From assembly GCA_900317325.1 (NCBI GenBank), contig ONGE01000014.1, forward strand, positions 43,896 to 107,895: 64,000 nt of DNA, read 5' to 3'. Below, piece by piece: positions 23,309 through 62,649 of the stretch. Under the pieces are notes generated by a model. The model saw only the letters and a list, made by a program, of their open reading frames with translations, was not told where the DNA came from and made no database searches. Positions within the stretch are counted from its first letter, which is position 1, and each line of letters starts with the position of its first letter. The translations under genes were made by a program, and so were the position numbers. Source of the stretch: an uncultured Prevotellaceae bacterium (GTDB lineage Bacteria > Bacteroidota > Bacteroidia > Bacteroidales > Muribaculaceae).

Positions 23309-23328
23309 CATCGCTTTTGACAACTCAT

Positions 23329-47712: not shown

Positions 47713-48594
47713 ATGAAACATGTGTCTGCTTGTTTACTGTTCATCCTGGCCCTGCTGTTGCCGGCTACCGCTTTGGCCCACGACTTTGAGGTCGACGGCA
47801 TCTACTACAACATCAACGGCAACGAAGCCACCGTTACCTACAAGGGCCCTGATTATGACACCTATAACGATGACTATATCGGTGATGTCATCATCCCTGC
47901 CACTGTTACCTATAACGGAATCACCTATCCTGTCACTTATATCGACTACAACGCCTTTAACAGTTGCTCACGGCTGACCAGTATTGTCATCGGCGACTCT
48001 ATCACTGCGGTCGGTTATAACGCATTCCAGAGTTGCAACGGACTGAAAAGCGCCGTCATCGGCAAATCGGTCAAGGTGCTTGAAGGGCGCTCATTCGCCA
48101 ATTGCAACTACTTGGAAAGTGTCACCTTCGGTCCTTCGCTGCAAATCATTGGAGAAGGTGCATTCTTAAATTGCCGGAGCCTGCTCAGCGCCACCATCCC
48201 CGAGGGTGTTACCATCATCGATGCCGAGGCATTCTCGGCATGCACGAGCATGACCAGCGTCAGCATCCCGCAATCGGTCAAGATCATCAATCACATGGCG
48301 TTTTCGGGGTGCATCAGCATGCCGACCATCACCATCCCCGACTCGGTCAAGTTCCTCGGACACAACATGTTCTACAACTGTTATGAGCTCCAGAGCGTGT
48401 ATATGCCCAACTCGGTCACCGAGATGGGCTCCCTGGCGTTCTACGGCTGCCGTAGCCTCACCGATGTCACGCTCTCCAACTCGCTGACCGACATTCCCTC
48501 TTACACATTCAGGGGGTGCACAAGTCTCAAAACCGTCACCATCCCCAACTCTGTAAGAACGATCGACGGCAATGCATTTAATGAATGTATTTAG
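47713..48594 (+). CDS. BspA-type leucine-rich repeat protein, probably truncated
   Basis: A 293-residue exported LRR protein. The signal peptide MKHVSACLLFILALLLPATALA is followed by DFEVDGIYYNI as in the 37945 protein. About nine LRR_5 units follow (for example IGEGAFLNCRSLLSATIPEGV, IDAEAFSACTSMTSVSIPQSV). The frame stops abruptly inside a repeat (TIDGNAFNECI), with no closing cap like the one in the 37945 protein. The stop falls at the left edge of the mobile element, so the 3' end was probably lost through insertion or deletion. The product may still be exported. Confidence 0.75.
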   Translation: MKHVSACLLFILALLLPATALAHDFEVDGIYYNINGNEATVTYKGPDYDTYNDDYIGDVIIPATVTYNGITYPVTYIDYNAFNSCSRLTSIVIGDSITAVGYNAFQSCNGLKSAVIGKSVKVLEGRSFANCNYLESVTFGPSLQIIGEGAFLNCRSLLSATIPEGVTIIDAEAFSACTSMTSVSIPQSVKIINHMAFSGCISMPTITIPDSVKFLGHNMFYNCYELQSVYMPNSVTEMGSLAFYGCRSLTDVTLSNSLTDIPSYTFRGCTSLKTVTIPNSVRTIDGNAFNECI

Positions 48595-48682
48595 AGACCT
48601 CAAACCAACCATGAACAGCACTAAACAACCAAATGTAAAACACTGAATTACAGATACTTTTAGGCTTTAACACTTCGGGGCG

Positions 48683-48761
48683 TATTTTTGGTTGCTTCGG
48701 AAATTCCCTATATTTTTGTCACGTATTTCTACCGCAGGGAATTTACGGGGCTATATTTTTG
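48683..48761 (+). promoter_or_regulatory. Three TATTTTTG boxes and an inverted repeat near the left end
   Basis: TATTTTTG occurs at 48683-48690, 48711-48718 and 48754-48761, the first and last preceded by GGGGC(G/TA). AAATTCCCT (near 48701) and AGGGAATTT (near 48735) form an inverted repeat around the second box. This may be a regulated multiple promoter for the HTH/integrase genes, or part of an integrase binding region. The rest of the 48595-48942 gap shows nothing else. Confidence 0.45.
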
Positions 48762-48942
48762 CCACATCGTGAACGTAGTTGACAAAGGTTGCTGACGGAT
48801 TACAATAGATGACAGGTTCTTGACCCGTTTTGAGAAAAGCGACATCGTGGCAAAAGGCGACATCGGGAGTCGAGTGTTTACTTGTGATGACCATGCGTAG
48901 AGGTACAACAAAGAACATGTTGAACCAATAAATATCGCAAGT

Positions 48943-49905
48943 ATGTCAAAGACCAGAAAATGCGCACATTGTGGCAAGGTTTTCACCACAAAGAGCGGAA
49001 TGCAGAAGTTCTGCTCGGAAGAATGTGCCGAGCAGGCAAAAGAAGCCAGGAAGAAACGTCAGCGTGACTTCCTTCGAGCCGTTGAACCGGTAATGGAACT
49101 CCAGCAGCAGGAGTACCTGACCTTCTCCAAAGCAGCCATCCTGTTAGGTTGTACCCGTCAGTATGTCTATAAACTCGTTGAGCAGGGGAAACTTCCTGCC
49201 TCACGGCTGAGCAGCCGGATGTCACTTGTCCGCAGGAGTGACATCGAAAAGATGTTTGATAACAATCCCTACAATCGTGTCATACCATGTTCAAAGCCAA
49301 AGAGGGCTGCTGACAAAGTACAACGAACATCTTCCAAGAAGGATAGCAAGAATGTACAGCCGACAGATGAAGTCCTTGAATACTATTCCGGCGAAGAGGT
49401 GATGGAGACCTACAAGGTCAAACGGTCTTGGTTATACACCACAGCCAAGCGTCACCAGATCCCCGTATGCCACATAGCAGGACGCAACTACTACAGCAAA
49501 AAACACGTTGATGCCATTTTCGCCCCACCCTCCGACATTGAAGGAATCATTGACTGGCTTTCATCCCAGGAGGTAGCCGAGCGTTACGGCATGAACCTCA
49601 ATGCTGTTCGTTCATATGCCCATAACCACAAGATACCGAGTAAGCGTGAGCACGGACGCACCTACTACTCCCAAAGCCATTTTGACGAGCTTCGCCGCAC
49701 CGACCTCGTTTCCGACGCCCGCTACTGCTCATCCGCAGAAGTGGCAGAGAAATACGGCATTTCCAAAGCCAACGTAGGAGTCATCGTAAAGATGCACCAT
49801 ATCACCAAGGTCAAGGTGGGACGGAACAACCTGCTTGTCAAGGAGGAGTTTGATAAAGTGATGGCAGACCGACTGGCGCAATTCGGTTCCTACAGGATAC
49901 TATGA
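48943..49905 (+). CDS. Zinc-ribbon protein with four excisionase-type HTH domains
   Basis: A 320-residue DNA-binding protein. The N-terminus is a zinc ribbon (Cys7, Cys10, Cys24, Cys28). Four MerR/excisionase-like winged HTH units follow: about 57-104 (YLTFSKAAILLGCTRQYVYKL), 146-190 (YYSGEEVMETYKVKRSWLYTT), 206-250 (WLSSQEVAERYGMNLNAVRSY) and 262-310 (YCSSAEVAEKYGISKANVGVI). Repeated xis-type folds suggest binding to several sites on the element ends, as an excision or directionality factor. It lies 205 bases upstream of the integrase on the same strand. The role is inferred. Confidence 0.82.
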   Translation: MSKTRKCAHCGKVFTTKSGMQKFCSEECAEQAKEARKKRQRDFLRAVEPVMELQQQEYLTFSKAAILLGCTRQYVYKLVEQGKLPASRLSSRMSLVRRSDIEKMFDNNPYNRVIPCSKPKRAADKVQRTSSKKDSKNVQPTDEVLEYYSGEEVMETYKVKRSWLYTTAKRHQIPVCHIAGRNYYSKKHVDAIFAPPSDIEGIIDWLSSQEVAERYGMNLNAVRSYAHNHKIPSKREHGRTYYSQSHFDELRRTDLVSDARYCSSAEVAEKYGISKANVGVIVKMHHITKVKVGRNNLLVKEEFDKVMADRLAQFGSYRIL

Positions 49906-50110
49906 GCACATTAATTCCGGCAAATTTAACGATTACTCGCCAATAACCAAGTTATTCCGCAATGATTCACAAGTTACGGCAAGTTATCAATGTCACGCGC
50001 GCATCATTCCACTACTTTGCGCCTGAAAAGTGGCAACAGCCATCATCAATCAAGGCAACCGAAAACGAATCAATGTATAACATATAATAAAGATAATAAA
50101 GTAAAGTACT

Positions 50111-51244
50111 ATGAGCAACATCTGCAAGACCGTGACACTCCGCACACGGAAGATCAAAGGCGGAGAACAGTTGTCCTTCTATTTGGACTATTACCCCGGC
50201 TACAGGGACGAGAGCACAATGAAGGTCATGCGCCATGAATCCCTCGGCATCTACATCTACGCCAAGCCTAAGAATCAGAGAGAAAGGGATTATAACGACC
50301 GCATGCGCGAGAAAGCCGAGGCTTTGCGCTGCCGCCGCTTCGAGTCCATCGTCAACGAACGCTATGACTTCTTTGACAAGGAGAAGATGAAGGGCGACTT
50401 TCTTGCTTACTTCAAGATGAAGGCCGATAAGAAAAACTGCAAGTGGCAGCATGTCTATAAACATTTCAACCGATTCTGCATCGGCAAATGCACATTTGAG
50501 GAAATCAATGTCGATCTGTGCAACAGATTCCGTGAGTACCTGATGACCGCCCCGCAGACCATCCACACAGAACACAGGCTGCACATCAATTCCATCGCAG
50601 GCTATTGGTCAACATTCAGGGCAGTCCTTCATACCGCCTACAGGGAACACAAGATTATGGAAAACCCTAACGGCTTCTTGGAACGAATTGATACCATCCC
50701 GACAGTCAAGGAACACTTGTCACGACAGGAACTTGTCAGGCTGGCGAACACTCCATGCGAATACCCTGTATTAAAGAAAGCCTTCCTTTTCGCCTGTCTT
50801 ACTGGACTGAGGAAAAGCGACATCAAGCAGCTCGAATGGACACACATACAGCCATATGGTGACGGCGGCATGTATGTCACCCTACGGATGCAGAAGACCA
50901 AGGAACTGGTGAACAACCCCATCAGTGACGAGGCATTGGAACTGATTGGCGGCAGCGGAACAGGCAAGGTCTTTGAGGGTTTCACCGACAAGATGACGCA
51001 GACACCGCTGAAGAACTGGCTGAAAGCGGCCGGCATCACGAAAAAGATCTCGTTCCATTGCAGTCGTCACACTTTCGGCTCATTACAGGTGGATGCAGGC
51101 ACAAGTGTCTATACCGTCCAGCACATGCTGGGTCACAAGAATGTCTCGACCACGCAGATCTATGCGACCATGGCAGACGATTCCAAGCGCGAGTCCGTCA
51201 ACCGCATCACGCTAAAGCCGTTCAAAGGATGCCGATTGTGCTGA
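50111..51244 (+). CDS. int: Tyrosine recombinase/integrase of the element
   Basis: A 377-residue site-specific recombinase. An Arm/SAM-like N-terminal region (about 1-195) precedes the catalytic domain with Arg234 (TGLRKSD), a Lys in MQKTKE near 261, His316-x-x-Arg319 (HCSRHTF), His342 (GHKNVSTT) and the nucleophile Tyr351. All catalytic residues are intact, so the element could still integrate or excise. The layout is typical of Bacteroidetes integrases of NBU/CTn-related elements. The att site is not identified here. Confidence 0.95.
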   Translation: MSNICKTVTLRTRKIKGGEQLSFYLDYYPGYRDESTMKVMRHESLGIYIYAKPKNQRERDYNDRMREKAEALRCRRFESIVNERYDFFDKEKMKGDFLAYFKMKADKKNCKWQHVYKHFNRFCIGKCTFEEINVDLCNRFREYLMTAPQTIHTEHRLHINSIAGYWSTFRAVLHTAYREHKIMENPNGFLERIDTIPTVKEHLSRQELVRLANTPCEYPVLKKAFLFACLTGLRKSDIKQLEWTHIQPYGDGGMYVTLRMQKTKELVNNPISDEALELIGGSGTGKVFEGFTDKMTQTPLKNWLKAAGITKKISFHCSRHTFGSLQVDAGTSVYTVQHMLGHKNVSTTQIYATMADDSKRESVNRITLKPFKGCRLC

Positions 51245-51383
51245 TCACAAATTCAGCCTACCCAGCAGTACAAGTTGTTGAACAGCATACGGATTGGGCA
51301 AGCCAGAATCTGTTGTGTGATAAGCGTGAATAATTTGGAAGTAATTTTTGTTCCAAAATGTTTCCATCTTTATAAAAAACAAC

Positions 51384-51600
51384 TACCTTTGTAGGTGGTA
51401 AGGGTGAGCCTTACTATTACATTTTGACAAAAAGCGTTATGCACGCCTTGTAATTGGAAATGTGAGAAACTTTCAGTAGGCAAGGGAGGCATAATGGTTC
51501 ATGCTTATAGCGTGGACTGTTATAGCTATATCTTCCTACAAAGGTAATTCTCACAACCTCCAATTAAAGATGTGGCTAATCAGTTCCACGCTTTATGACA
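51384..51600 (+). ncRNA. Candidate structured RNA downstream of the integrase
   Basis: A -7 box TACCTTTG (51384-51391) is followed at once by a perfect hairpin GTAAGG-GTGAG-CCTTAC (51398-51414). Two longer-range pairs then enclose the middle: AATTGGAAATGTGAGAA (51452-51468) with TTCTCACAACCTCCAATT (51548-51565), and AGCGTGGACTG (near 51509) with CAGTTCCACGCT (near 51580). The pairs interleave, so they cannot all be nested. There is no good reading frame. It could be a small RNA, a leader of the 51641 gene or a recombination site. No known family was recognised. Confidence 0.4.
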
Positions 51601-51640
51601 TTTTATACCCTTATGGAACTGGAGGGTAAAGAATGAAAAT

Positions 51641-52210
51641 ATGAAAAAGTTATTAGTTCTTTCTTTTTTAGTATTGTTTTCTGCTTTGATCTCCGGAGCA
51701 AAAGAAAAAATCCTTTTAGATTATACCGAGGATGGCATTCGAACAGTTCAAACTGATTTTACAAAATCAGATTATTTGTTCTATGCCGTAAGGGCAAACA
51801 AAAGTAATTCAGATGTATCATGGGCAATTGTTCTCAGAATGACAACATTTGATGTTCCTATTACTGGGGTTGAAAAAGGTGCTCCTCTTTTAATCAGATT
51901 GGGAAATGATGAGGTTCTTGAACTTAATTGCGCCGCAAAGGCAAGTGATGATGTTGGTGAAGCCGCGTCATATAATTGGAGATATGACATATATCCTACT
52001 TTTTATATTTCTAAAACGGATTTGGATAAAATTGCCCAATATGGCATAAAAAAAGTCCGCATTCAGCTAATAGATAAAGACGAAATGCAATCTGAATGGA
52101 ATTTTACCAAACAAAAAGACATAGATAAGATTAGTCGAAATTTCATGGATAAGATTGAAGTTGTTGAGGCTTTGATATCAAAAAGTAATGATATAAGGGA
52201 AGACTTCTGA
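51641..52210 (+). CDS. Secreted hypothetical protein, AT-rich
   Basis: A 189-residue exported protein (signal peptide MKKLLVLSFLVLFSALISGA) with no recognised family. After the leader it has a short beta-rich domain (ILLDYTEDGIRTVQTDF, WAIVLRMTTFDVPI) and a helical C-terminal end. Its low GC differs from the integrase before it, and no partner gene is evident. It may be cargo or part of an older insertion. Confidence 0.65.
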   Translation: MKKLLVLSFLVLFSALISGAKEKILLDYTEDGIRTVQTDFTKSDYLFYAVRANKSNSDVSWAIVLRMTTFDVPITGVEKGAPLLIRLGNDEVLELNCAAKASDDVGEAASYNWRYDIYPTFYISKTDLDKIAQYGIKKVRIQLIDKDEMQSEWNFTKQKDIDKISRNFMDKIEVVEALISKSNDIREDF

Positions 52211-52305
52211 CTCTGTCTTTTTGGTATAGCTCCATACTTTTGTGGAAACTTAAACCGCAAGATTATGGAGTTAAATTTTAAAAGTGTGTAGAAATTTTTC
52301 CCAAC

Positions 52306-52491
52306 TTGAACGCATCGGCTGCAATCCAGGTGGACAGCGGCAAGATGTTCAAGGAGGACGTGGACATTGTGCAGGTCTTTATTGACGACAAACTGTCCTA
52401 TGTACCTTGGGGCGGTGACAACATCCCCTACAACATCCTCAACCTGATTGAGAGAGATGAATCGTTATCTCGACCAAGTTTGCAGCATTAG
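52306..52491 (+). pseudogene. Fragment resembling a phage portal-type protein
   Basis: About 55 codons of higher-GC sequence open without a natural start: LNASAAIQVDSGKMFKEDV, then VQVFIDDKLSYVPWGGDN and IPYNILNLIERDESLS. The VPWGGDNIPYNIL... stretch recalls portal-type proteins (Y-I/V-PWG-x-DN-x-P). It stops soon after and has no flanking phage genes, so it is called a remnant. The rest of the 52211-52791 gap holds no other recognisable feature. Family identity is uncertain. Confidence 0.35.
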
Positions 52492-52791
52492 TCGCCACGC
52501 AGTGACGGCGTTTTGTCAAACCCTTGCAACATGCGAGATGTTCTACACCTAGGTTTCCTACAGCAGTGGGCTGGAGTAAAACATCAATCAAATATGTACG
52601 TTTCTATATTAATTATATACGAGAGGCGTTGCTTTTCCCTTCATCTTTCCCTGATCATTATCCATATTCCGTTTTTAATAAAAGATGATGGTTCTGTTTG
52701 TACGGATTCTTTTACAATTAAGTCAGTACTATTTTTCATGGATTCAAATTGCATATATTTTTGGCTTATTGTCATCTTATTACCACTAATT

Positions 52792-53706
52792 TTATCTTAG
52801 GGCGAGCATTTTAGCCTTACTTATCTCCCTCGCAGCTTTATTGATGTCAGCTGTCTGCTCCTTGCCATCTGATTCGGCTTTAGTATGCAGTCCAGCCATA
52901 ATAATAGAGCCATCATCTTGATAGCCAAAATATATACGAAGACCACTACCTAATTGACGCAATTCATAGACAGATACGTTTCTTTTTACTTCACACTTCT
53001 TAATTAGGTCATCATCTTTCCTGATAGGGAAGAGCATATCTTTTCTTAATGCAGCTTTGAAACGTTCAAAAGCTATTTGCTGCAATTCTACTGGTGCGTT
53101 GTTCCAATTCTTCTCGAATGAGGGAGTTATTGTTATGCCATGTTTTTCAAATAATCCCTTGAAACGAGTCAATCCATCTGCTCCCTGATTAGCTTTTTCG
53201 AACAACCACCTCTCAATAAATGATATATCTTCCTGTGCATAATAGTTAATAGCACTTATGGTATTTCCACCCTCGTTAAGAATGTCAAGAGTATCATGTT
53301 CTAAGTATTCAGCAAGTGGTATCGAGAGTAAAGGCCAAGACATGCGATGTGCTATCATCAAATTAATAGCATCTTCTCCTTGGAATTTGTAACCTTTTTC
53401 AAGTAATTCTTCCTGATCTTTTTCACTAAGAGCATTTTCATGCGAAGCTATAAGATTCTGTGTGAACAAAAACTGTGCTGCAGTACGCACATCTCGATTG
53501 GCACAAGACTCAATTAGGCGTGATAATGTAATCCCACATATAATGATTGAGTTTGGCGGAACAGCTGTAATGATGGGACGTGTCAGCTTTAAGTCTGGTT
53601 TTTTGGCAAGAAGAGTGGTCATACAAACCATCTGTTCAAATGCAGCCTGTATATCTCTGTCGCTTTTTTGCGGCAATACATCATTTAGAAAAAAAGTTGT
53701 CATCAT
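52792..53706 (-). CDS. Third gene of putative defence operon, RelE/HigB-like C-terminus
   Basis: A 304-residue soluble protein without signal or membrane segments. The first about 200 residues are helical and unrecognised (ICGITLSRLIESCANRDVRTAA; FERFKAALRKDM near 220). The last about 75 residues (VSVYELRQLGSGLRIYFGYQ, GSIIMAGLHTKAESDGKEQT and a final basic helix AAREISKAKML) resemble the fold of RelE/HigB-type toxins (phage Gp49-like). Its start overlaps the ATPase gene by 26 bases, so it is cotranslated with it. An effector role is inferred. Confidence 0.7.
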   Translation of the reverse strand: MMTTFFLNDVLPQKSDRDIQAAFEQMVCMTTLLAKKPDLKLTRPIITAVPPNSIIICGITLSRLIESCANRDVRTAAQFLFTQNLIASHENALSEKDQEELLEKGYKFQGEDAINLMIAHRMSWPLLSIPLAEYLEHDTLDILNEGGNTISAINYYAQEDISFIERWLFEKANQGADGLTRFKGLFEKHGITITPSFEKNWNNAPVELQQIAFERFKAALRKDMLFPIRKDDDLIKKCEVKRNVSVYELRQLGSGLRIYFGYQDDGSIIMAGLHTKAESDGKEQTADINKAAREISKAKMLALR

Positions 53707-54712
53707 TCATGCTCTTAAGTAGCTCACCTGCATTTATACCAAACTGGTCAAACATTCCATTTGGCCACTGACTGAGGCTTCCGTCATCAAACAACTTGGG
53801 AGATTCAACTGTGGTTAGTTTTTCGTTGTCAAGCTCAAACCAATGAGTGCTGACTTTTTGAGCAAAACCATGATGTTGCTTTGCGTATATTCTGATTCCA
53901 TCGAAAAGATGGTCACTATGAGTTTCCACTACCGCCTGTGCGCCCGCTTCTACAGCAAGGCAAATAAGACGCGCAAGTTCTGTTTGACCTTTAGGATGAA
54001 GATGAGCTTCTGGATTCTCCAATAATACAACTGAGCCTTTTTCTATAGTGCTTATGAAAAGAGCTACTATGATTGGGAGTGTATAACTAAGACCGAATCC
54101 TACATTCTTTGCTCTATGACCATTAAATTCCGAATAAGATGAATCACTTGTTTTGATGATATTTGACTTGAATCTCACACCCGGAGAAATGGTACCCAGC
54201 CATGCTTCAAGGTTGAATTCAAATGTTTCGCCTTGTGAATTAGGATGAATAAGAGATTTGTCAAGAATGGTATTCCAATAATGATCTATGCAATTTAAAA
54301 CATTGTCACCTCGATCATCTAATTGATAGTCAGATGCGATGGGTATAGATGTGCGGGGGCCGAAACGATCTGCGGACACATAAATAAGATTTGGGAAACC
54401 TCCTCCAAAAATGCCACCATCCCCTGCAGTATAACTAATTGAATCTGATACATCTATATCGTCTATCTTGTCATAGATGGCTTCTATTTCAAATGGTTCT
54501 TTTGCATAAGTATTCTGCAACTCGTCAATTGTTCCATGCCCCTCAAGTAATGGATTATATCTATTCTGAGCAACATTTCCCAATATGCGCAAAGCCTGGA
54601 TTACTGTACTTTTGCCACTACTATTCAGACCCGTAAGAACTGTGAGTTGTGAAATAGATATGGTCTCGTCCAGAAATGACTTGAAACCACGTAGTGAAAC
54701 TTCCTTTATCAT
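53681..54712 (-). CDS. OLD/DUF3696-type AAA ATPase of putative defence operon
   Basis: A 343-residue ABC/RecF-type ATPase. Walker A is GLNSSGKST (28-36); the late Walker B and D-loop region is VVLLENPEAHLHPKGQ near 233-248, and the H-loop is ETHSDHLF near 268. The LENPEAHLHP run is characteristic of the OLD-like AAA_15/AAA_21 families and of DUF3696-containing ATPases. There is no TOPRIM nuclease domain. It overlaps the DUF262 gene by four bases (ATGA) and the following gene by 26. In such systems the ATPase typically senses phage activity and controls an effector. Confidence 0.85.
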   Translation of the reverse strand: MIKEVSLRGFKSFLDETISISQLTVLTGLNSSGKSTVIQALRILGNVAQNRYNPLLEGHGTIDELQNTYAKEPFEIEAIYDKIDDIDVSDSISYTAGDGGIFGGGFPNLIYVSADRFGPRTSIPIASDYQLDDRGDNVLNCIDHYWNTILDKSLIHPNSQGETFEFNLEAWLGTISPGVRFKSNIIKTSDSSYSEFNGHRAKNVGFGLSYTLPIIVALFISTIEKGSVVLLENPEAHLHPKGQTELARLICLAVEAGAQAVVETHSDHLFDGIRIYAKQHHGFAQKVSTHWFELDNEKLTTVESPKLFDDGSLSQWPNGMFDQFGINAGELLKSMNDDNFFSK

Positions 54713-56136
54713 ACAAAATATTTATTCATTAATTCTTCTAATTTTTCAAATCTCATCTTTACTGACAAGTGCTTCATACTGTCACGTGATATGGCTATTG
54801 TAAAATACGGATCATCAAGCAGCTCACGATACTCTTTCATAAACAGCCCTCTCCTTGAATAGAGCTTATTAAAACTATCTTCACTGATTGTTGGCAGCAA
54901 GACACCCCACGCTTCGAAAAGCGACTTATTAATTGGCCGACGGCGCATATCTCCTGTACTCTTTCGGAAAGCATGTCGCCCAAATAACTTATGTGCACGC
55001 TCCATCGCTAGTAAGAAGGTCTGGCGTATGTCGTCTATATTAACGCTCTCAATATCATCCATATTGACAGTTTTCTGCTTAACACATTTTTTAAGTTCTC
55101 GAGTGTCAAGTTCTGGAAGTGAATTCAGAATAACCATTGTATCAGATAACCATGTATCTATATTGACTGTCCGTCTGTATGTCGAAGGCTTTCTTACCAA
55201 AAATGATAAAAAACGGAGGATAAGCTCACGATCTTCGAGACGTTGTGCATTGATTGAGTCACAGGTAGCTCGTCTAAATGCTTCAGTCTTAGCCAACTCG
55301 TTTAGTAATCTGGTTGAAGGGCCTGTATAAAGAGCATTTCTTATTTCCTGAGAACTTAATGGCATGCCTCCCGTGTTGAGCCGTTTGAAAATATTACGTT
55401 TCACTTCTTCATGAGTGCCAGGATTGATAATAGTGAATGTGAAAACGGTCTCAATGACTCTATTGTAAAGGTGGGTTGGCAATTCATTCATTGTCTTCCC
55501 CTCTAATTTTTTCCAAAACTCCAGTTTAGTAAGTCTAATGCCATTACCTTTTTCAGATAGGTTGTTTTCCTTATCATCAAGATATTTCTTGCCTAAAACA
55601 AAATCCCGGAATGTACTAATGCGCTGAAGCCCATCAACAACTGTCCAGTTTGACTTTTCATCGGAAGAAACATAGAACATAGGAATAGGGATGTTCAAAA
55701 GAAGCGATTCTATTAGTTGAGACTTTCTGTCATCACTCCATACTTCATTACGTTGGAAGTCTGGATTTAGTCGAATACTACCCTGCTCTAAACGACGAAG
55801 GAGTGTCTCCATAGTAACGAGTTTAGTATCTATTGACACCTCCTCAGGGTCAAACGGATCATTCTCATCATCTTCTCCACCTTCCTCATCGTCCTCAATA
55901 CCAGTAAGGCTTTGATTCATTTCATGTCGCAAGAGAACTTCAAGCTTTCTTTTTAATTCATCGAGTTCCTCGTCAAGTTCTCCTGTTCCATCAAAATGGA
56001 TGGAATTATTATCATCGAAGTAAAAGAAGAAAAAACTCTTACCTGTCTCATCTGTCAAGTTGTATTTATTAACATCCAACTTGTTTAACTGCAACGGTTG
56101 CTCTTCACCGTGCTTTATTTTAAATTTTACTGCCAT
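54709..56136 (-). CDS. DUF262 (GmrSD N-terminal-type) protein of putative defence operon
   Basis: A 475-residue protein. A strand-rich N-terminus and an acidic linker (about 80-103, Asp/Glu-rich) precede the DUF262/ParB-like fold: DFQRNEVWSDDRKSQLIESL (126-145) and the nucleotide-hydrolysis motif as DGLQRIST (168-175), where most members have DGQQR. Later runs FKRLNTGGMPLSSQEIRNAL and RELILRFLSF are typical of the family. No HNH/GmrD-like nuclease tail is visible, so it is not a complete type IV restriction enzyme. It is the first gene of the operon, with promoter box at 56165-56158. Confidence 0.88.
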   Translation of the reverse strand: MAVKFKIKHGEEQPLQLNKLDVNKYNLTDETGKSFFFFYFDDNNSIHFDGTGELDEELDELKRKLEVLLRHEMNQSLTGIEDDEEGGEDDENDPFDPEEVSIDTKLVTMETLLRRLEQGSIRLNPDFQRNEVWSDDRKSQLIESLLLNIPIPMFYVSSDEKSNWTVVDGLQRISTFRDFVLGKKYLDDKENNLSEKGNGIRLTKLEFWKKLEGKTMNELPTHLYNRVIETVFTFTIINPGTHEEVKRNIFKRLNTGGMPLSSQEIRNALYTGPSTRLLNELAKTEAFRRATCDSINAQRLEDRELILRFLSFLVRKPSTYRRTVNIDTWLSDTMVILNSLPELDTRELKKCVKQKTVNMDDIESVNIDDIRQTFLLAMERAHKLFGRHAFRKSTGDMRRRPINKSLFEAWGVLLPTISEDSFNKLYSRRGLFMKEYRELLDDPYFTIAISRDSMKHLSVKMRFEKLEELMNKYFV

Positions 56137-56157
56137 TAGTCAAATAGAATTTGGCGT

Positions 56158-56165
56158 CAAAGATA
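56158..56165 (-). promoter_or_regulatory. -7 box of the defence-type operon
   Basis: TATCTTTG on the minus strand, about 22 bases before the ATG at 56136, so the leader is very short. Confidence 0.6.
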
Positions 56166-56779
56166 CGAAAAAAAACGAAAAGCACTCATTTTTATCTTTA
56201 AAACTTTTTTATTACTTACTGTGCTCAATATGGTTTAATAATAAATAGAGACCAATAAAGCATGCGGTAGAAAAAGAAACAAAGTGGCCTGCCATTAGAA
56301 AAACAATGAAGAATTATGAATGCAACGTCGATAATGTAAACATCCTATGTGAGATAAGTTTCACTCTATCAAAGAAATGAAGCCATGGGTATTGACAAGA
56401 GTGATAAAAGGCTAAACAAATACTCAAGATATAATACACCCTAAAGAAAGAGGTACCTGATTCGTGAGACATTTATTTGGGTTAAACATGCCAAGAAGCA
56501 ACAACGAATCTCTCGCTCACATAACTTCGCGATTCCCTCGACTCATCATTTATGACTTCTTTTGAATCAAATCAAATGTTGGTTCTATTTGAGTGGATAA
56601 ATAGAACCAAATGGCCAGATAGTGCGAAAATGAATCGGAAAATCGGGGCAATCGTCAACAATAGACAAGAATCAGAGTAATTTCGCGATACGTTTTAACT
56701 GCATGTGTACTGACGAGAAACTATCGCAAGCATACGGTAACAAATAGATATTTGACAACAATACGAAAAAATCAAGGAG
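56166..56779. other. Gene-free stretch with perfect 12-bp inverted repeat
   Basis: About 600 AT-rich bases without a supported gene. The one clear structure is TTGGTTCTATTT (56579-56590) and AAATAGAACCAA (56599-56610) around an eight-base centre, preceded by short AATCAAATCAAATG repeats. It could be a terminator-less hairpin, an operator or a replication/transfer site. Nothing else is recognised. Confidence 0.5.
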
Positions 56780-57625
56780 ATGAAAACAACTCTGATTCGA
56801 GAGAGTGCAAATACAACGATGCACTTCAAAATGACCTTTAAAGCGACGCTGCATGTTCTTCTTGGCATTGCAGTTCTGTTCATCGCTATCATCCCGGCCA
56901 GGATGGTAAGTGGTATCTTTTCACAAGACACGACCATATTCATTATCTCGTTGACAGGCTTTATTGCCCTGCTGGAATATGTCGTGTGGTGTTTCCTCGA
57001 CGCTCCATCGCGGGTATATGATTCATTCCAATCCTCCAAGGCTGACGGTTTGCTTCAAGACAGTCCTATCGTTGATGTGCCGATAAAGCCGACATTGGCG
57101 AACACAGAGATGGATTCCCAAGAATCAATTGAGAAGATTGTTGAGGCAGCTGAGGAGAACAAAACGGAGAACAATCATCTTGCCCTCTACAGGAAAGGAT
57201 GTGATGATTACTATCAGAATGTGGCTGCACAAAAGAAGGAACAACTTGACATCATCGCCGCCTATCTGCACTACATCATGGCTCCTTTCATCAAGCAGGA
57301 GGAAATGGACAGCTTTTGTAGCGAAATCATGTCTTTCGCCATCAATCCAGACTATCTGCCGAAGCCATGGAAGGGTCTAAAAGGCACGTTGACCAGCTTC
57401 GATGTCCGTCACCTGATATGGAACATTGCCGTAAGATTGGGACTCGGCAAGGGCAAGCCCTATAGCGTGGAAACCTGCATCAATTTCATCCGCACCATGT
57501 TTCCTGACCTGTGTGAAGACCTTGACTCTTCCACATTGAAGAATCTAAGAGTAACATCCACCACTGAAAAGATCCACATTGACGAACCTGGCAATGACGG
57601 CATCTCATTCCATATACCGGAATAA
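56780..57625 (+). CDS. Mobile-element membrane protein of unknown function
   Basis: A 281-residue protein with two membrane segments near the N-terminus (TLHVLLGIAVLFIAIIP and TIFIISLTGFIALLEYVVW). A hydrophilic, partly coiled-coil linker follows, then a conserved-looking C-terminal domain (LTSFDVRHLIWNIAVRLGLG and VETCINFIRTMFPDLCED). The ATG at 56780 follows GGAG immediately, so a start at 56819 is possible. It lies on the same strand as the mobilisation genes and resembles accessory proteins found beside mob genes in Bacteroides elements; no function is known. Confidence 0.75.
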   Translation: MKTTLIRESANTTMHFKMTFKATLHVLLGIAVLFIAIIPARMVSGIFSQDTTIFIISLTGFIALLEYVVWCFLDAPSRVYDSFQSSKADGLLQDSPIVDVPIKPTLANTEMDSQESIEKIVEAAEENKTENNHLALYRKGCDDYYQNVAAQKKEQLDIIAAYLHYIMAPFIKQEEMDSFCSEIMSFAINPDYLPKPWKGLKGTLTSFDVRHLIWNIAVRLGLGKGKPYSVETCINFIRTMFPDLCEDLDSSTLKNLRVTSTTEKIHIDEPGNDGISFHIPE

Positions 57626-57660
57626 TTCAACAAAACCTAGTGCCAAAAAGTACAAAGATT

Positions 57661-57675
57661 CCTTATTTAATAAGG
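57661..57675. repeat. Small palindrome after the 56780 gene
   Basis: CCTTATT-T-AATAAGG, without a T-run. Confidence 0.4.
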
Positions 57676-57873
57676 AGAGTTGGAAAATATGGTCAAATTC
57701 GAATGTTTTCCAACTATTTATCGTTGTCCGTTATAGCCATTATCATGCCATTTGTAATGCCTTTTGAGTCCAATAATCGTCAATGTTCATGTCTTTTCAA
57801 GTTTTAATGAGGTGATTCAGAAGTTACCGTGAGTTTCCATCGGCACGGGTGCGTCATTCCTGTCCTTTGCCGC

Positions 57874-57893
57874 CGGTCTCTAACCAAAGACCG
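57874..57893 (+). promoter_or_regulatory. Hairpin just before the excisionase-type gene
   Basis: CGGTCT and AGACCG arms around CTAACCAA, ending ten bases before ATG 57903. It may affect ribosome access. Confidence 0.45.
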
Positions 57894-57902
57894 TGAAAAA
57901 AC

Positions 57903-58247
57903 ATGGAAAAACAAGAACTTACATTCAACGACCTCCCGCAGGTCGTCGCCCAGCTTCGGGATGAGGTGATGGATAACCAAGTACGTGAAAACCGCCACAA
58001 GCCTATGACGGTGGAGGAAGCGGCTGAGTACACGCGCATCCCTATAGGAACGCTGTACATGAAACTCGGTGACGGGACGATACCGGCAACGAAACCAGGG
58101 AAACGCTACGTCCTCTATCAGGATGAGCTTGACAAGTGGCTGGAAGCGAACCGCAAGAACGCAGTGCCTCTTACTGCCGACGAGAAGAACGAGGCCATCC
58201 TCTCTTCGCACAAGCGGAAGCCGAACAAGGCGGATTGGCACGATTAA
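57903..58247 (+). CDS. Excisionase-type helix-turn-helix protein
   Basis: A 114-residue protein with one HTH_17/excisionase fold at about residues 35-85 (MTVEEAAEYTRIPIGTLYMKL, then IPATKPGKRYVLYQDELDKWL). A charged helix precedes it. This is the standard size and layout of Xis-like directionality factors in Bacteroidetes elements. It starts 33 bases upstream of the 58280 gene and is probably in the same transcript. Confidence 0.88.
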   Translation: MEKQELTFNDLPQVVAQLRDEVMDNQVRENRHKPMTVEEAAEYTRIPIGTLYMKLGDGTIPATKPGKRYVLYQDELDKWLEANRKNAVPLTADEKNEAILSSHKRKPNKADWHD

Positions 58248-58279
58248 CCTTTTTGTTCAACATCTATACAGAAACGATT

Positions 58280-58975
58280 ATGAAGTCACTTGACAGAATT
58301 CCGTTTTTAGCGAACGTGCTCATCGTTGCATGTTCACGTCCGAATGCCGAAGTCGGCAAACTGGTAAAGGCATTGGTGACCTATGCCACCGATGGTAAAC
58401 GAACCGACCTTGATGACATCCGTCTGGAAGCCTACTTCGATTTGATTGCACAAGACCTTGATTCACTGCGAATGGCTGCAGAGCAGAAAAGCCGCAAATG
58501 TAGCGAGAGTGCGAAGTGCAGAACTGCAAGGTATGGCAGTTCGTCTAATGGTTCTACAAAAAAAGCAAATGCAGCAAACGCAACGAACGTTACCACGGCA
58601 AAGCCAAAAGCGGTTGCAGACCTGTCCGCCGAATCATCAGCTACTAACGCATCTACCGATGTTGACATTGCTGTTGAATCCAGAGAATTAAGCAATGACA
58701 ACCATCCCAAGGACACCGCCACAATTGGATGCACCACCAATTTCAGCGCAGCCGATGTCACTTCATCCTTTGAACAAATGAAGGAGTGTTACAAGAAGAT
58801 CGGTGACAACGAATCGCAAGCCTTGGCTGTATGGCAGCAACTCAGTGATGACGAGCGAACGTCAGCATTCGCTCACGTTCAGCGATTGCAAGGTGACCTT
58901 TCCTCACGTTCCTATCTCTACGTCTATCTGCGAGACAAGGAATGGACGAAAGTTACTTCACCTGTCAACCAATGA
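58280..58975 (+). CDS. Element accessory protein, DUF6291-like N-terminus
   Basis: A 231-residue soluble protein. ATG 58280 is chosen; an in-frame extension to 58136 only runs antiphase through the previous gene. The N-terminal helical part (KSLDRIPFLANVLIVACSRP, LVKALVTYATDGKRT, FDLIAQDLDSLRM) resembles DUF6291-type replication-accessory proteins. A low-complexity Ala/Thr/Asn/Ser linker (about 80-150) leads to a short C-terminal helical domain (SFEQMKECYKKIG to VYLRDKEWTKV). Position next to oriT/mob suggests a replication or transfer role, which is inference. Confidence 0.7.
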   Translation: MKSLDRIPFLANVLIVACSRPNAEVGKLVKALVTYATDGKRTDLDDIRLEAYFDLIAQDLDSLRMAAEQKSRKCSESAKCRTARYGSSSNGSTKKANAANATNVTTAKPKAVADLSAESSATNASTDVDIAVESRELSNDNHPKDTATIGCTTNFSAADVTSSFEQMKECYKKIGDNESQALAVWQQLSDDERTSAFAHVQRLQGDLSSRSYLYVYLRDKEWTKVTSPVNQ

Positions 58976-59009
58976 GGATGCACAAGGTGACATCCTTGAT
59001 TCCCTGGTA

Positions 59010-59231
59010 ACCTGAGTGGAGGCGTCCGCCGAGGGGGATTTCTAAAAATCCCATAACACAATATGGACTTTTAGATTCGCTTTGCTCCCTTAAAAAGTCC
59101 CATTATGCTCTCCGAGGGGTAAGCCAATTCCCCATAATGCGGAACAGTCCAGCCCTAACAGATGTGATAGGTATTGGCAAGGGACTGCATCCGCGAGGGA
59201 GTGACTCTCTCCCTCGACCCTCCACTCAGGT
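59010..59231. other. Putative oriT of the element
   Basis: Outer perfect 13-bp inverted repeat: ACCTGAGTGGAGG (59010-59022) and CCTCCACTCAGGT (59219-59231). Inside are GGGATTT-CTAA-AAATCCC (59036-59053), GGACTTTTA with TAAAAAGTCC, CATTATG with CATAATG, GGGG/CCCC, and CGAGGGAG-TGACTCT-CTCCCTCG (near 59192). It sits 50 bases before the relaxase gene, the normal place for a mobilisation origin. The exact nick site cannot be identified. Confidence 0.6.
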
Positions 59232-59281
59232 TTCACCCGAGACCTGAATCATATCCGGCAACAGAATCAAGAGGATAAAAA

Positions 59282-61339
59282 ATGAGTAAATCAACAAAAC
59301 AAAAGGCATGTGCGGCTATCCATGTAGGAGCACCCGCAAAGTCTTTTTCCGCTGCCGAAGGCTATGAGCCGGAACGTCGCGGATGGGACGAGAAAACATA
59401 CCGCCTCAAGAACAACGACACCAATAACCACTACGATTTCTCTCGCAAGCATCTCAACTTTGAGATCAATTGCGAGGGAAAGATAGTCCCCCTTGGCTCC
59501 AATCCCATACCACTTCATGAGCGTCTGAAGCATCGTCTTGACGAACTCGGTTTCAAACCGTACAAGGACAAAGGCAATCCTCTGGGCAATTCCGACAACA
59601 GTCCTAACTGCACCGTCGGCATCATCGTCAGCGGCGACCATGATGTATTGACTCGTCTCGCTTTTGGAGAGCAGGATGTGGATTTCACACTCCAAAGAAG
59701 CAATGCAAACGTCCAATTGATGCAGGGTATCAAGGACTGGGCTATGGACACCTACCTATGGGCATGTGAGCGTTGGGGTTCAGAGAACATCATTGGCTTT
59801 GATGTCCATTGTGACGAGACCACACCGCACATTCACATCCAGACCATTCCTGTGGCGAAGACCAAAACAAGAGGTCGAGCACCGGTCAAGTATGTGCATA
59901 AGAATGACTCTTCCAAGGTGCTTTCCCATAAGGAATGGAAGAAACTGTCTGAAGAAAACCGTTGCGACTTCATAAAAACTGAAGTCGAACGGAGGGAAAA
60001 GGAATGTGTATCATTCGCCCGTGTTTGGGGCGCAGACAAATACGAGGTAGGACGGACATACTATCAGATGCACACCGACTACCACGACAAAGTGGGCTAC
60101 AAATACGGGCTGGAACGTGGTGATAACTTCTCCTCGCTGACTGATGAGGAACAGCGTGAGCGGGTCCACAAGGACAAAGCGGTGCTGGAAGCTGAGCGCC
60201 AGGCGAGGGTGTCCATCGAGCAATCCAAACTCGAGAAGGTAGAAATCGAACGGCGAAAGAACAGAATTGCTGATGAAGTTCTGGAAGCAGAACAACGTAT
60301 AGACAAGGCAGAGAGGGAACTCGCCAATTTGGAGGCGTACATCAAGGCTACTGACGTCACGCGGGAAGACCTGCTTGTACCTTCACTGAACACGACCCCT
60401 CTTGTCATGGACACATACAAGGCAATCATTGAAGAACTCAGCAAACCGATTCCGTTTAATAGCCAGAAGGCATGGCGGGAGGAACGGAAGACGGCAATAA
60501 AGCGGATTCTCACTGATTTGCAGGACCACCTGTTCGAAGCCAAAGAAGCGCAGAAGAAAGACATCCTCAACTTGGGTCAGTCGCTTTATGATAAAGCGAT
60601 GAAGGATGCAAGAGCCATCATCTTGCAGAACCAGCAACTCCAGAAGACCAACGAGTTAGTGGCGGCCGAGAATAGCCGGTTGAAGGAGAAAATCTCAACG
60701 ATGGATGAGACGGCCATCAGCAAGCTGCGCAAGGAAAAAGACGAGGAAATCACCAGACTCAAAGCAGAGCGGGACAAGGCCTTGTCCAATGAAATCCATT
60801 CTAACAACATGGCATCCAGGGAACGCCAACGGGCAGACAATGCCGAGAGGCAACTCTATGAAATACTCTCCATCCCAGAAATCAAGGGACTTTGGGACAC
60901 CATACAGCAAAACAGGAGAACCTTCTGGCAGCAGGTTGACAGGTGGATTGGCGATGCCAAGACTGCCATATACAATTTTGCCAAAAGCCATAGCCAACAT
61001 GACTTCATGGCGGATGACAGAAACTTCATCAGCTGGGGTATCATAGCTGAAGCCTTGCGGAACAATCTCGATGCGGCCAATGCAGAGCAGCGGATGAAGG
61101 CTACGGAGCTGTTGTTGGACGATATCTCCTGGAGTGGCACCACTAATTTCATGTGCGACCTTGCGATGAAACGTACTGGACAACTCTGCGAGGAGATGAG
61201 CATCACCAAGGAATTGATGCAAGGTCTTCTACTGGCAGCAGGAGGCAGAGTGCCCATCACCCACGGTGGCGGAGGCACCGACAATACCCTCACCAACTGG
61301 GACGGTACAAAGAAACGCAATGGATGGGGAATCAGTTGA
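59282..61339 (+). CDS. mob: MobV/Pre-type relaxase
   Basis: A 685-residue mobilisation protein that would nick oriT and lead the transferred strand. The metal-binding signature HCDETTPHIHI (near 176-186) is the Mob_Pre/MobV three-histidine motif. An N-terminal relaxase domain (about 1-290) is followed by a long coiled coil (about 295-550; runs such as AEQRIDKAERELANLEAY) and a C-terminal accessory region ending in a Gly-rich tail. The size is at the large end for MobV. The preceding 50 bases follow the putative oriT. No other transfer genes are present, so a helper conjugative system is needed. Confidence 0.93.
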   Translation: MSKSTKQKACAAIHVGAPAKSFSAAEGYEPERRGWDEKTYRLKNNDTNNHYDFSRKHLNFEINCEGKIVPLGSNPIPLHERLKHRLDELGFKPYKDKGNPLGNSDNSPNCTVGIIVSGDHDVLTRLAFGEQDVDFTLQRSNANVQLMQGIKDWAMDTYLWACERWGSENIIGFDVHCDETTPHIHIQTIPVAKTKTRGRAPVKYVHKNDSSKVLSHKEWKKLSEENRCDFIKTEVERREKECVSFARVWGADKYEVGRTYYQMHTDYHDKVGYKYGLERGDNFSSLTDEEQRERVHKDKAVLEAERQARVSIEQSKLEKVEIERRKNRIADEVLEAEQRIDKAERELANLEAYIKATDVTREDLLVPSLNTTPLVMDTYKAIIEELSKPIPFNSQKAWREERKTAIKRILTDLQDHLFEAKEAQKKDILNLGQSLYDKAMKDARAIILQNQQLQKTNELVAAENSRLKEKISTMDETAISKLRKEKDEEITRLKAERDKALSNEIHSNNMASRERQRADNAERQLYEILSIPEIKGLWDTIQQNRRTFWQQVDRWIGDAKTAIYNFAKSHSQHDFMADDRNFISWGIIAEALRNNLDAANAEQRMKATELLLDDISWSGTTNFMCDLAMKRTGQLCEEMSITKELMQGLLLAAGGRVPITHGGGGTDNTLTNWDGTKKRNGWGIS

Positions 61340-61475
61340 TGCCACTTGTGACAAAACATGTTAGGTCTTATCATCAATTCGCAAAGGGGAAAAATTCGAT
61401 TCGTTCGCTTTTGGATTAGGCAACGGACTAAATATCAATAATTTCAAAGAACTTTTACAATTGTTTAGGGTGGTG

Positions 61476-61487
61476 GACACTAGTGTC
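61476..61487. repeat. Perfect palindrome near the right end of the element
   Basis: GACACTAGTGTC, in a non-coding gap between mob and the pseudogene. It could be part of an attachment site or IS end; no matching copy was found near the left end by eye. Confidence 0.35.
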
Positions 61488-61520
61488 TGGACTAATGACG
61501 TATTGAAACATGAATACGAC

Positions 61521-62572
61521 CTATCTTAGAGGAAGGATGTCTTGTGTAGTGTATTTAGCAATCTGTTTCCTCATCCATTGGTTGAAATCCTTTTGGTCAA
61601 TGCCAATCTCTTTTTTGAGGAAAGCAAAGAAATCTTCTACAGTTGGTTTTGTGTTAAATGCTCGTTTCAACGCATCGTAACCACCTTTCTTGTAGAGTTC
61701 GTAACACACAATTTTCCCGACAAGATAAGTGGGTGCAGTCTGGTTATCCATAATGTAAAAGCTACTGTTGTAATTGGCAATATCATCATCAGGATGTGCC
61801 TCAAGCCAGTCCTTCATTCGTTGATAATGCTGGCGATAGGTGAGACCAAACTCTTCATTGCCTTGATGTTTCTGGTTCAAAACTCTCACCATGCACCGAG
61901 TCTCCGTAAACAATAAAATTATTCGTGTCGGTGCTGCCGCCAGTATTGCCTACATGGTCGCCCATTCCAGCCACATAGTCAAAACCTTTTATTTTGAATT
62001 CTTCATCCTGGTTCTGTGCAATATAATATGTGATACGGTTGGGAACGTTAGCGCCTAACTTGTCACGGAACATCGTCACTGTGTTATTTGCCTCACGAGC
62101 AATGTCTTCATTGAAGTCAAATCCAGGGTAATAGCAATAATCAAATACTCCTACCGCCTTGCGTGGCCAGTTGCGAGTATTATAATCAATCCAATTATAG
62201 AGTTTAAACTCACCGTTCTCATCTTTCTTGGCAATATGATTAGTGATGGCGAGCACATAGATTTCCGTATTCTCATTATAAGGCGTGAAAAACATAGAAC
62301 GGATGACATAGACATCGTTCTCGGGACGGATTTCAATTACTTTATTGAGATACGAATAAAGGTCTGTTGACAGATAGCCGTCACAATTCACTAGGTCGGG
62401 GGACTTCCATTTGATTTTATCAGCATCATTCCACTGAGGAAAGTCGGTTGTCGAATCGTTATGCGCTTCAACAAAAGACTTCCACAAATCATATACCACC
62501 GCCTTGTTCCCAAGCCATTGAATGGATTGCGAAAAGGATCATGAAGATTGAGATTATTGATAGTCGTTTCAT
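61521..62572 (-). pseudogene. Frameshifted secreted protein gene (possible peptidase-like)
   Basis: A broken gene. A signal peptide (MKRLSIISIFMILFAIHSMAW from 62572) runs into a stop; one surplus base near 62510 (in TTGGGAAC) shifts the frame to NKAVVYDLWKSFVEAHNDS..., which continues to a stop near 61855. The remainder (NQKHQGNEEFGLTYRQHYQR ... to 61521) is in another frame, so a second shift or deletion lies near 61890, just after VYGDSVHGE. No HExxH zinc site remains. The intact family may be a surface metallopeptidase-like protein, but this is uncertain. It borders the mobile element's right side. Confidence 0.6.
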
Positions 62573-62649
62573 CATCTTGAATGTTTATTGTGCCACAATA
62601 TTCAACTAATTGCATATAATAGACGCACTCAACACATTGCAAGTCCTAT

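What the first reader, a model, noticed from the sequence alone, without database searches (positions are those of the whole stretch)
52792..56136. Overlapping three-gene defence-type operon (DUF262, DUF3696-type ATPase, HigB-like third protein) carried by a mobilizable element
The sequence shows three minus-strand genes with 4- and 26-base overlaps, AT-rich against their surroundings, inside an integrase/relaxase element. The first has the DUF262 QRNxxW and DGLQR motifs without a GmrD nuclease tail; the second is an OLD-like ATPase with LENPEAHLHP; the third has a RelE/HigB-like tail. From memory, the three-gene Menshen anti-phage system also combines a DUF262 protein, a DUF3696-type ATPase and a third protein, so this may be a divergent member or a related unnamed system. 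I could not verify that match.
Basis: partly seen in the sequence, partly recalled or inferred. Interest (0 to 1): 0.82.

Follow-up and report, generated by a model that had tools for sequence, protein, structure and literature searches.

The report
Menshen anti-phage operon, RelE-type effector
Three overlapping bacterial genes in this window form a member of a known family of virus-defence operons (Menshen), most likely a sensor pair that releases an RNA-cutting toxin to stop infected cells, and they ride as optional cargo on a small mobile DNA element.

Summary
Three intact minus-strand genes (54709-56136, 53681-54712, 52792-53706) overlap by 4 and 26 bases and are AT-rich. They lie in a roughly 5.3-kb cargo of an integrase/MobV element; the three sister elements whose contigs span the site lack it. 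All three proteins match PADLOC's Menshen models over nearly their whole profiles (NsnA 3e-124, NsnB 1e-87, NsnC 2e-29). The same architecture was published as "ptuXYZ", in a text that never says Menshen. NsnA: DUF262/ParB fold, DGLQR intact, no DUF1524; best solved structure BrxU. NsnB: OLD/SMC-type ATPase with DUF3696 tail. NsnC: model pLDDT 91, closest to RelE/HigB-type toxins. Across 98 non-redundant third proteins the N-terminus forms one cluster in 85 while C-termini fall into six multi-member kinds, with at least 16 changes of kind on the NsnA-NsnB tree. Best reading: NsnA-NsnB senses infection and releases an exchangeable effector, here RelE-like. Activity is untested. New member of a known kind. 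In passing: the carrier's left end sits at one codon of leucine-rich-repeat genes in 9 of 9 copies.

The parts
54709..56136 (-). nsnA (DUF262/ParB-fold NTPase-type protein, 475 aa; core from about residue 94, DGLQR at 168-172)
   Evidence: PADLOC NsnA PDLC03877 E=3.1e-124; Pfam GmrSD_N PF03235 2.3e-26 is the only family listed at E<=1; AF2 pLDDT 82.6, pTM 0.55, best PDB match BrxU 7p9k E=1.6e-4 prob 1.00; DGLQR invariant in 24 sequences, window included
55858..56136 (-). extra N-terminal module of nsnA, residues 1-93 (predicted small beta domain about residues 1-76, then an acidic linker); one of several kinds of N-terminal extension in the family
   Evidence: AF2 strands within 3-48, helix 58-76, low-confidence 77-95; 19 of 97 NsnA, window included, fall in this kind by single-linkage phmmer
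53681..54712 (-). nsnB (OLD/SMC-type P-loop ATPase with DUF3696 tail, 343 aa)
   Evidence: PADLOC NsnB PDLC03878 1.4e-87; Pfam AAA_15, AAA_21 and DUF3696 (32.5 bits, cut-off 22); PDB 6p74 OLD-family protein 2.7e-7; no TOPRIM family among the 9 listed
52792..53706 (-). nsnC (304 aa: shared N-terminal domain plus RelE/HigB-like C-terminal domain, about residues 190-304)
   Evidence: PADLOC NsnC PDLC03897 1.7e-29 over residues 2-293; AF2 pLDDT 90.9; top PDB matches are toxin-antitoxin toxins (which gives no aligned range; C-terminal placement rests on TIGR02683 at 245-293, and stand-alone 61-99-aa frames matching only NsnC profile 244-295); E248, R257, K276 invariant and K236 nearly so in 22 sequences, window included
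56158..56165 (-). TATCTTTG, a match to the Bacteroidetes -7 box TAnnTTTG (consensus recalled), starting 29 bases before the nsnA ATG; candidate operon promoter
   Evidence: sequence; 3 matches on this strand in 5,800 bases, so suggestive only
51226..56575 (.). cargo segment (Menshen operon plus ORF 51641-52210) missing from three sister elements, which have 85-125 bases instead; right edge 56532 by one of the three
   Evidence: blastn against L213 (G006), L214 (G021, right side seen only to 57216), L215 (G026): backbone 89-95% identical on both sides; a 75% match of window 52621-52700 to the short spacer of L213 and L215
51641..52210 (+). 189-aa ORF of the same cargo, apparent signal peptide by eye, no significant family
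48585..61447 (.). carrier: mobilizable integrative element; left end sharp, right end unresolved
   Evidence: left boundary: G025 match ends at 48579 and shared element end from 48585; right side
50111..51244 (+). tyrosine recombinase of the carrier
   Evidence: PF00589 2.8e-20, PF13102, PF17293
59282..61339 (+). MobV-family relaxase of the carrier
   Evidence: NF041497 116.9 bits, cut-off 100

Best explanation
A complete Menshen (NsnABC) anti-phage operon. NsnA (DUF262, ParB/sulfiredoxin fold, nucleotide site) and NsnB (OLD/SMC-like ATPase) form a sensing complex; NsnC docks on it through its conserved N-terminal domain and carries a RelE/HigB-type ribonuclease at its C-terminus. In healthy cells NsnA-NsnB holds NsnC inactive or unreleased; a phage cue changes the nucleotide state of NsnA/NsnB, NsnC is freed, cuts mRNA or otherwise blocks translation, and the infected cell stops making phage. 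Shown here: gene content, order, conservation, the predicted folds of NsnA and NsnC, repeated exchange of the NsnC C-terminus (or of all NsnC) on a conserved NsnA-NsnB chassis, and carriage as optional cargo of a mobilizable element. Inferred: complex formation, restraint and release, RNase activity, the trigger, abortive infection.
For: Three near-full-length PADLOC hits. NsnC fold: the first six PDB matches are chains of a Streptococcus pneumoniae toxin-antitoxin module (6af4, 6af3; HigBA by recall) and RelE 1wmi (E 2.3e-3 to 5.7e-3, prob 1.00), then Cami1, HigB2, RelE 4fxe. E248, R257, K276 conserved. NsnA: BrxU/ParB fold, DGLQR invariant, no DUF1524. Effector exchange: first 150 aa of gene 3 in one cluster for 85 of 98 non-redundant proteins, against C-terminal clusters of 35, 23, 18, 6, 4, 4 and 8 singletons; at least 16 changes of C-terminal kind on the 97-row NsnA+NsnB tree, where 5 is the least possible and shuffles average 47.8; L066 against L175: NsnA 84%, NsnB 82%, NsnC 20% identical. 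Pfam names among 95 gene-3 proteins: Gp49 13, YoeB 4, DUF4160 1. Contexts, four neighbourhoods looked at: TraG/TraJ/TraK conjugative transposon in Phocaeicola vulgatus (L100), type I R-M genes (L098), AbiEii (L105), nothing recognised in L097. Published: mutation or deletion of the DUF262 gene abolishes Menshen resistance (review PMC10952713, passages).
Against: No Foldseek match of NsnC reached E 1e-3 and no aligned range is given; the RelE call rests on consistent family, probability and one weak sequence hit. Catalysis is unproven, and ParE-type relatives of this fold inhibit gyrase (stated in the PMC11980606 abstract). The PIN-like N-terminal fold that Gerdes reports was not among the 50 listed matches. 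A review links an OLD-family TOPRIM domain to one Menshen component; none was found here. The NsnA model has pTM 0.55 and a low TM-score to BrxU (0.23 by query length), so that match is domain-level. Four of the six multi-member C-terminal kinds got no family name from any call, so 'all are RNases' is not shown. The operon is sporadic: P0003 in 2 of 101 genomes searched, one the window's own; no match in plasmids or phages.
Confidence: 0.8

Rival explanations
1. Menshen by descent, but the killing step is DNA cleavage by NsnA-NsnB (ParB/Srx- or OLD-nuclease-like), with NsnC only an accessory or specificity factor.
For: Gerdes calls PtuX a putative nuclease; Mariano and Blower describe the Menshen partner as a predicted OLD nuclease and link a TOPRIM domain to one component; NsnB resembles an OLD-family protein.
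Against: No TOPRIM or DUF1524 domain listed for either protein; NsnB is only 343 aa; exchange of tails, some toxin-like, sits in NsnC.
Confidence: 0.1
2. A toxin-antitoxin-like module: NsnA-NsnB is chiefly an antitoxin chassis that stabilises the mobile element, with phage defence secondary.
For: RelE/HigB-like tail; carried by a mobilizable element.
Against: No small antitoxin gene seen beside it; two of four homologous neighbourhoods looked at hold type I R-M or AbiE genes; published Menshen protects from phage.
Confidence: 0.07
3. A decaying or unrelated metabolic operon that only resembles Menshen.
For: Only its sporadic distribution.
Against: Three near-full-length specific hits, intact frames, third-position-biased divergence, operon conserved across phyla.
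Confidence: 0.01

Closest known systems
Menshen (NsnA-NsnB-NsnC), as modelled in PADLOC-DB 2.0.0
   Same: All three components, order and near-overlapping spacing; NsnA DUF262, NsnB ATPase, NsnC from a set of many NsnC models.
   Different: NsnA has an extra 93-residue N-terminus with a predicted small beta domain; NsnC is only 101.5 bits to its best model; the TOPRIM domain a review links to one Menshen component was not found.
ptuXYZ (Gerdes, mBio 2025, PMC11980606; section 26 read)
   Same: DUF262 protein without DUF1524, P-loop ATPase, two-domain third protein with a YoeB/HigB-like BECR C-terminus. The main text holds 'Menshen' 0 times, so the two names very likely denote overlapping sets (my inference).
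   Different: PIN-like N-terminal domain not confirmed here; whether the 17 published operons include this clade was not checked.
GmrSD / BrxU / SspE (DUF262 + DUF1524 restriction)
   Same: DUF262 fold and D-G-x-Q-R nucleotide motif; BrxU is the best structural match.
   Different: No DUF1524/HNH domain; separate ATPase and toxin-like partners.
HigB/RelE/YoeB toxins; Cami1
   Same: Predicted fold of the NsnC C-terminus.
   Different: Fused behind another N-terminal domain and partnered with NsnA and NsnB, not a small antitoxin (Cami1's CARF domain is recalled).
PARIS (AriA-AriB), Septu (PtuA-PtuB)
   Same: ABC/SMC-type ATPase beside an effector; NsnB hits AriA at 1.4e-27, after NsnB at 1.4e-87. 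The trap-and-release mechanism is recalled.
   Different: No DUF262 protein and other effectors (recalled).

Membership tests
Menshen | NsnA: DUF262 protein | tested here: met
   PDLC03877 3.1e-124; PF03235 2.3e-26
Menshen | NsnB: ATPase | tested here: met
   PDLC03878 1.4e-87 over protein 1-333, profile 1-344 of 345; DUF3696 above Pfam cut-off
Menshen | NsnC third component | tested here: met
   PDLC03897 1.7e-29 over 2-293 of 304; PADLOC's own score threshold is not shown by the tool
Menshen | three genes adjacent, one strand, A-B-C order | tested here: met
   same in homologues
Menshen | OLD-family TOPRIM domain in one component (said of Menshen in a review; not treated as defining, because PADLOC's 345-position NsnB model is matched over 1-344 without it) | tested here: not met
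   no TOPRIM family among Pfam hits at E<=1 for the three proteins
Menshen | anti-phage activity dependent on its genes | not testable with these tools
   needs phage plating
ptuXYZ | DUF262 without DUF1524 | tested here: met
ptuXYZ | PtuA-like P-loop ATPase | tested here: inconclusive
   NCBIfam PtuA 4.7e-6 but 25.8 bits against cut-off 500; NsnB not folded here
ptuXYZ | third protein C-terminal BECR (YoeB/HigB) domain | tested here: met
   Foldseek top matches RelE/HigB-type toxins, prob up to 1.00, best E 2.3e-3, none at 1e-3; placement at the C-terminus
ptuXYZ | third protein N-terminal PIN-like domain | tested here: inconclusive
   no PIN protein in the 50 matches listed of 526; no dedicated N-terminal search
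GmrSD type IV restriction | DUF1524 nuclease domain | tested here: not met
   only GmrSD_N listed for P0001
type II toxin-antitoxin HigBA/RelBE | stand-alone toxin with adjacent small antitoxin | tested here: not met
   toxin-like domain is part of a 304-aa protein; its operon partners are NsnA and NsnB

The most novel reading that the evidence does not exclude
NsnA-NsnB is a general latch onto which both halves of a defence response are swapped independently: recognition modules at the NsnA N-terminus (the window carries a small beta domain; others carry unrelated extensions of 63-206 residues) and killing modules at the NsnC C-terminus (RelE/HigB-like, YoeB, DUF4160, a colicin-E3-like motif by recall, and kinds without a name), several of them plausibly aimed at translation. 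That would make Menshen a modular, naturally re-targeted translation-shutdown system. [quoted passage not shown]
Probability: 0.45. Interest if true: 0.5.

Novelty: new member of a known kind. Interest (0 to 1): 0.33.

Why it matters
It adds a clean, mobile, rare Menshen operon with a well-modelled RelE-type effector, links two names in print (Menshen and ptuXYZ), and points to a natural experiment (near-identical NsnA-NsnB with unrelated NsnC, L066 and L175) for testing whether one sensor pair can drive different effectors. A 2026 review lists Menshen's mechanism among the unknown (PMC12926258, passage seen).

Tried and rejected
Sequence searches with NsnC alone gave little: genome-contig scan 0 relatives, plasmids and phages no match at E 0.01, PDB only chance hits. 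An NsnA-like stretch is in 123 plasmid records, all under 60% identity and none covering 80% of the query; whether NsnB and NsnC follow there was not checked. The key Menshen polymorphism paper (PMC12065111) is not held, so its content is unknown to me beyond its title. VIA-align was unavailable. Considered and rejected: GmrSD type IV restriction (no DUF1524), plain toxin-antitoxin pair, metabolic operon. Repeats, tRNA genes (one tRNA-Val at 23328, far away) and Rfam (none in 46-64 kb) gave no att site; sister genomes gave the left end. Two scripts that looked for leucine-rich repeats to the right of the element used a faulty pattern, found while checking this report, and are discarded; one search repeats the search with positive controls. 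Names such as 'colicin-E3-like' for one tail class, HigBA for 6af3/6af4 and the -7 box consensus are recalled and come from no call. One fetched ORF (L084) matched both NsnA and NsnB and gave no third gene; L067's 'third gene' (203-base gap) is doubtful but was counted as a singleton; some gene-3 starts with long upstream overlap may be mis-set. Four gene-3 proteins also matched a PADLOC CARF model, not followed up.
Full report
WHAT IS THERE. Three intact ORFs on the minus strand at 54709-56136 (475 aa), 53681-54712 (343 aa) and 52792-53706 (304 aa) overlap by 4 and 26 bases. GC is 0.38-0.39 against 0.45-0.50 in the element's ends and about 0.55 upstream. A TAnnTTTG box starts 29 bases before the first ATG (consensus recalled, 3 matches in 5,800 bases of that strand).

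FAMILY. PADLOC gives NsnA (3.1e-124), NsnB (1.4e-87) and NsnC (1.7e-29) in order, i.e. Menshen. Pfam: P0001 GmrSD_N only; P0002 nine families led by AAA_15, AAA_21, with DUF3696 above its cut-off; P0003 nothing. NCBIfam puts a sub-threshold RelE/ParE match on residues 245-293 of P0003. The same three-gene architecture is described as 'ptuXYZ' in PMC11980606 (section 26 read in full); its main text contains the word Menshen 0 times. A library search for 'ptuXYZ' found that one paper. A search for Menshen with phage found 11 papers, of which I saw passages of four; one of these, a review, links an OLD-family TOPRIM domain to one Menshen component, which I did not find here. The dedicated paper by Li et al. 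2025 is not held.

STRUCTURES. NsnC, in an alignment of 22 sequences, models at pLDDT 90.9, pTM 0.68. Its first six PDB matches are toxin-antitoxin toxins (6af4 and 6af3 chains, RelE 1wmi; E 2.3e-3 to 5.7e-3, prob 1.00), followed by Cami1, HigB2 and others; none of 526 matches reaches 1e-3, and the table gives no aligned range. That the toxin fold is the C-terminal part follows from the NCBIfam stretch and from three stand-alone frames of 61-99 aa that match only positions 244-295 of the NsnC profile. NsnA, in an alignment of 24, models at pLDDT 82.6, pTM 0.55; BrxU is first (1.6e-4, prob 1.00), then ParB proteins, with SspE at 0.033. NsnB was not folded; it finds an OLD-family protein in PDB (6p74, 2.7e-7).

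CENSUS. NsnA's PADLOC model hits 45 of 393 genomes of the order at E<=1e-50, and 1 of 14 control genomes. This NsnC model hits 8 of 393, three of them by the short frames above and five by long ones (250-331 aa frames); 0 of 14 controls. P0003 itself hits 2 of 101 genomes (relatives plus own), one being the window's own. From 56 fetched neighbourhoods of NsnA hits, 33 had an NsnB match (one of them an ORF matching both proteins) and 29 a third gene. From 80 named and 15 viral-contig loci (118 relatives were found in genome contigs, the best 80 kept), 79 had NsnB next to NsnA and 73 a candidate third gene, 72 of at least 150 aa. With the window this makes 102 third proteins, 98 after removing near-copies.

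EXCHANGEABLE EFFECTOR. The first 150 residues of the third protein fall into one phmmer cluster for 85 of 98; the last 125 residues split into clusters of 41, 35, 6, 5 and 4 with 7 singletons, and the last 95 residues, at a stricter cut, into 35 (window's kind), 23, 18, 6, 4, 4 and 8 singletons. Clusters are single-linkage and the stretches differ in length, so this is a comparison, not a proof. On a quick maximum-likelihood tree of NsnA+NsnB (97 rows) the six kinds, 90 rows, need at least 16 changes (least possible 5; shuffled mean 47.8, 0 of 200 as low): the tails are inherited with the operon but replaced repeatedly. L066 and L175 have 84% and 82% identical NsnA and NsnB and 20% identical NsnC; there all of NsnC differs, so whole-gene replacement is as good a reading as tail replacement. 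Of 95 third proteins scanned (seven of 102 left out: four copies and L067, L068, L131), Pfam names Gp49 in 13, YoeB in 4, DUF4160 in 1 and two other families in 1 each at E<=0.01; PADLOC has many separate NsnC models that match members, the commonest in 47, so the diversity was already known to that database. Four of the six multi-member kinds got no family name.

NsnA N-TERMINUS. The window's NsnA has 93 residues before the conserved core. Of 97 NsnA, 38 have 60 or more residues there; 19 (window included) fall in the window's kind, 5 and 4 in two others, and 10 stand alone. The AF2 model gives a small beta domain for it. A recognition role is inference.

CARRIER. Sister elements in G006, G021 and G026, the three found whose contigs span the site, match the window at 89-95% on both sides of the segment 51226 to 56532/56575 but have 85-125 bases in its place, so the Menshen operon and ORF 51641-52210 are optional cargo. 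Elsewhere Menshen lies inside a TraG/TraJ/TraK conjugative transposon in Phocaeicola vulgatus ATCC 8482 (L100), beside type I R-M genes (L098) and beside AbiEii (L105); the nearest relative, L097, has no recognised mobile or defence gene among the five neighbours scanned. Four neighbourhoods were looked at.

MECHANISM. Most likely: NsnA-NsnB senses infection through their nucleotide sites and releases or licenses NsnC, whose RelE-type domain blocks translation. Shown: components, predicted folds, motifs, exchange, mobility. Inferred: complex, trigger, RNase activity, cell arrest. My odds: a Menshen operon about 0.95; the RelE-type domain being the killing part about 0.75; the whole explanation 0.8.

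NOVELTY. New member of a known kind.

Noticed in passing
48585 (left end of carrier); L222-L230: In 9 of 9 copies of the carrier's left end found in 61 same-genus genomes (window's included), the end lies in a leucine-rich-repeat gene (Pfam-tested only for the window, LRR_5/BspA type; the others by their translation) at the same codon, right after the Cys of AFxxC (VFxxC in one); the element supplies ATT TAG, so each protein is cut short as ...FxxCI-stop. In G025 the gene is uninterrupted and its repeats go on for about 1.2 kb past the site. An element aimed at a repeated protein-coding motif; one literature search gave 2 papers whose listings did not bear on it.
   Followed up: partly
61427-63999; L213, L214, L215, L231, L232: Leucine-rich repeats do not resume in window 48601-64000, in 3.3 kb of G021, or up to the contig end in G006; in G026 they recur about 27 kb to the right of the left end (with positive controls). 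The window's right flank matches other genes of G003 and G011, and 61427-61488 is a dispersed repeat in the genus. Larger element, IS-mediated loss or misassembly is open.
   Followed up: partly
57680-57717; L213:6600-9910; L215:5870-9170: Sister elements carry other cargo at a second site: an outer-membrane-receptor-like protein and a regulator-like protein in G006, an ATPase-like protein and two smaller ORFs in G026 (names by eye; three of them without NCBIfam hits).
   Followed up: partly
61521-62499: Two overlapping minus-strand ORFs (61521-61913, 61855-62499) look like one broken gene; related DNA in G003 and G011 covers most of both. Described only.
   Followed up: no
48943-49905: A 320-aa protein with four HTH_17 (excisionase-type) stretches just before the integrase.
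   Followed up: no
L112, L113, L177, L178, L142, L056, L070 (NsnA N-termini): NsnA proteins carry several unrelated N-terminal extensions (63-206 residues before the core in 38 of 97), candidates for recognition modules.
   Followed up: partly
L068:3252-3971: The third gene of one operon clusters with no NsnC, at either end; by eye it might be of phospholipase-D nuclease type.
   Followed up: no
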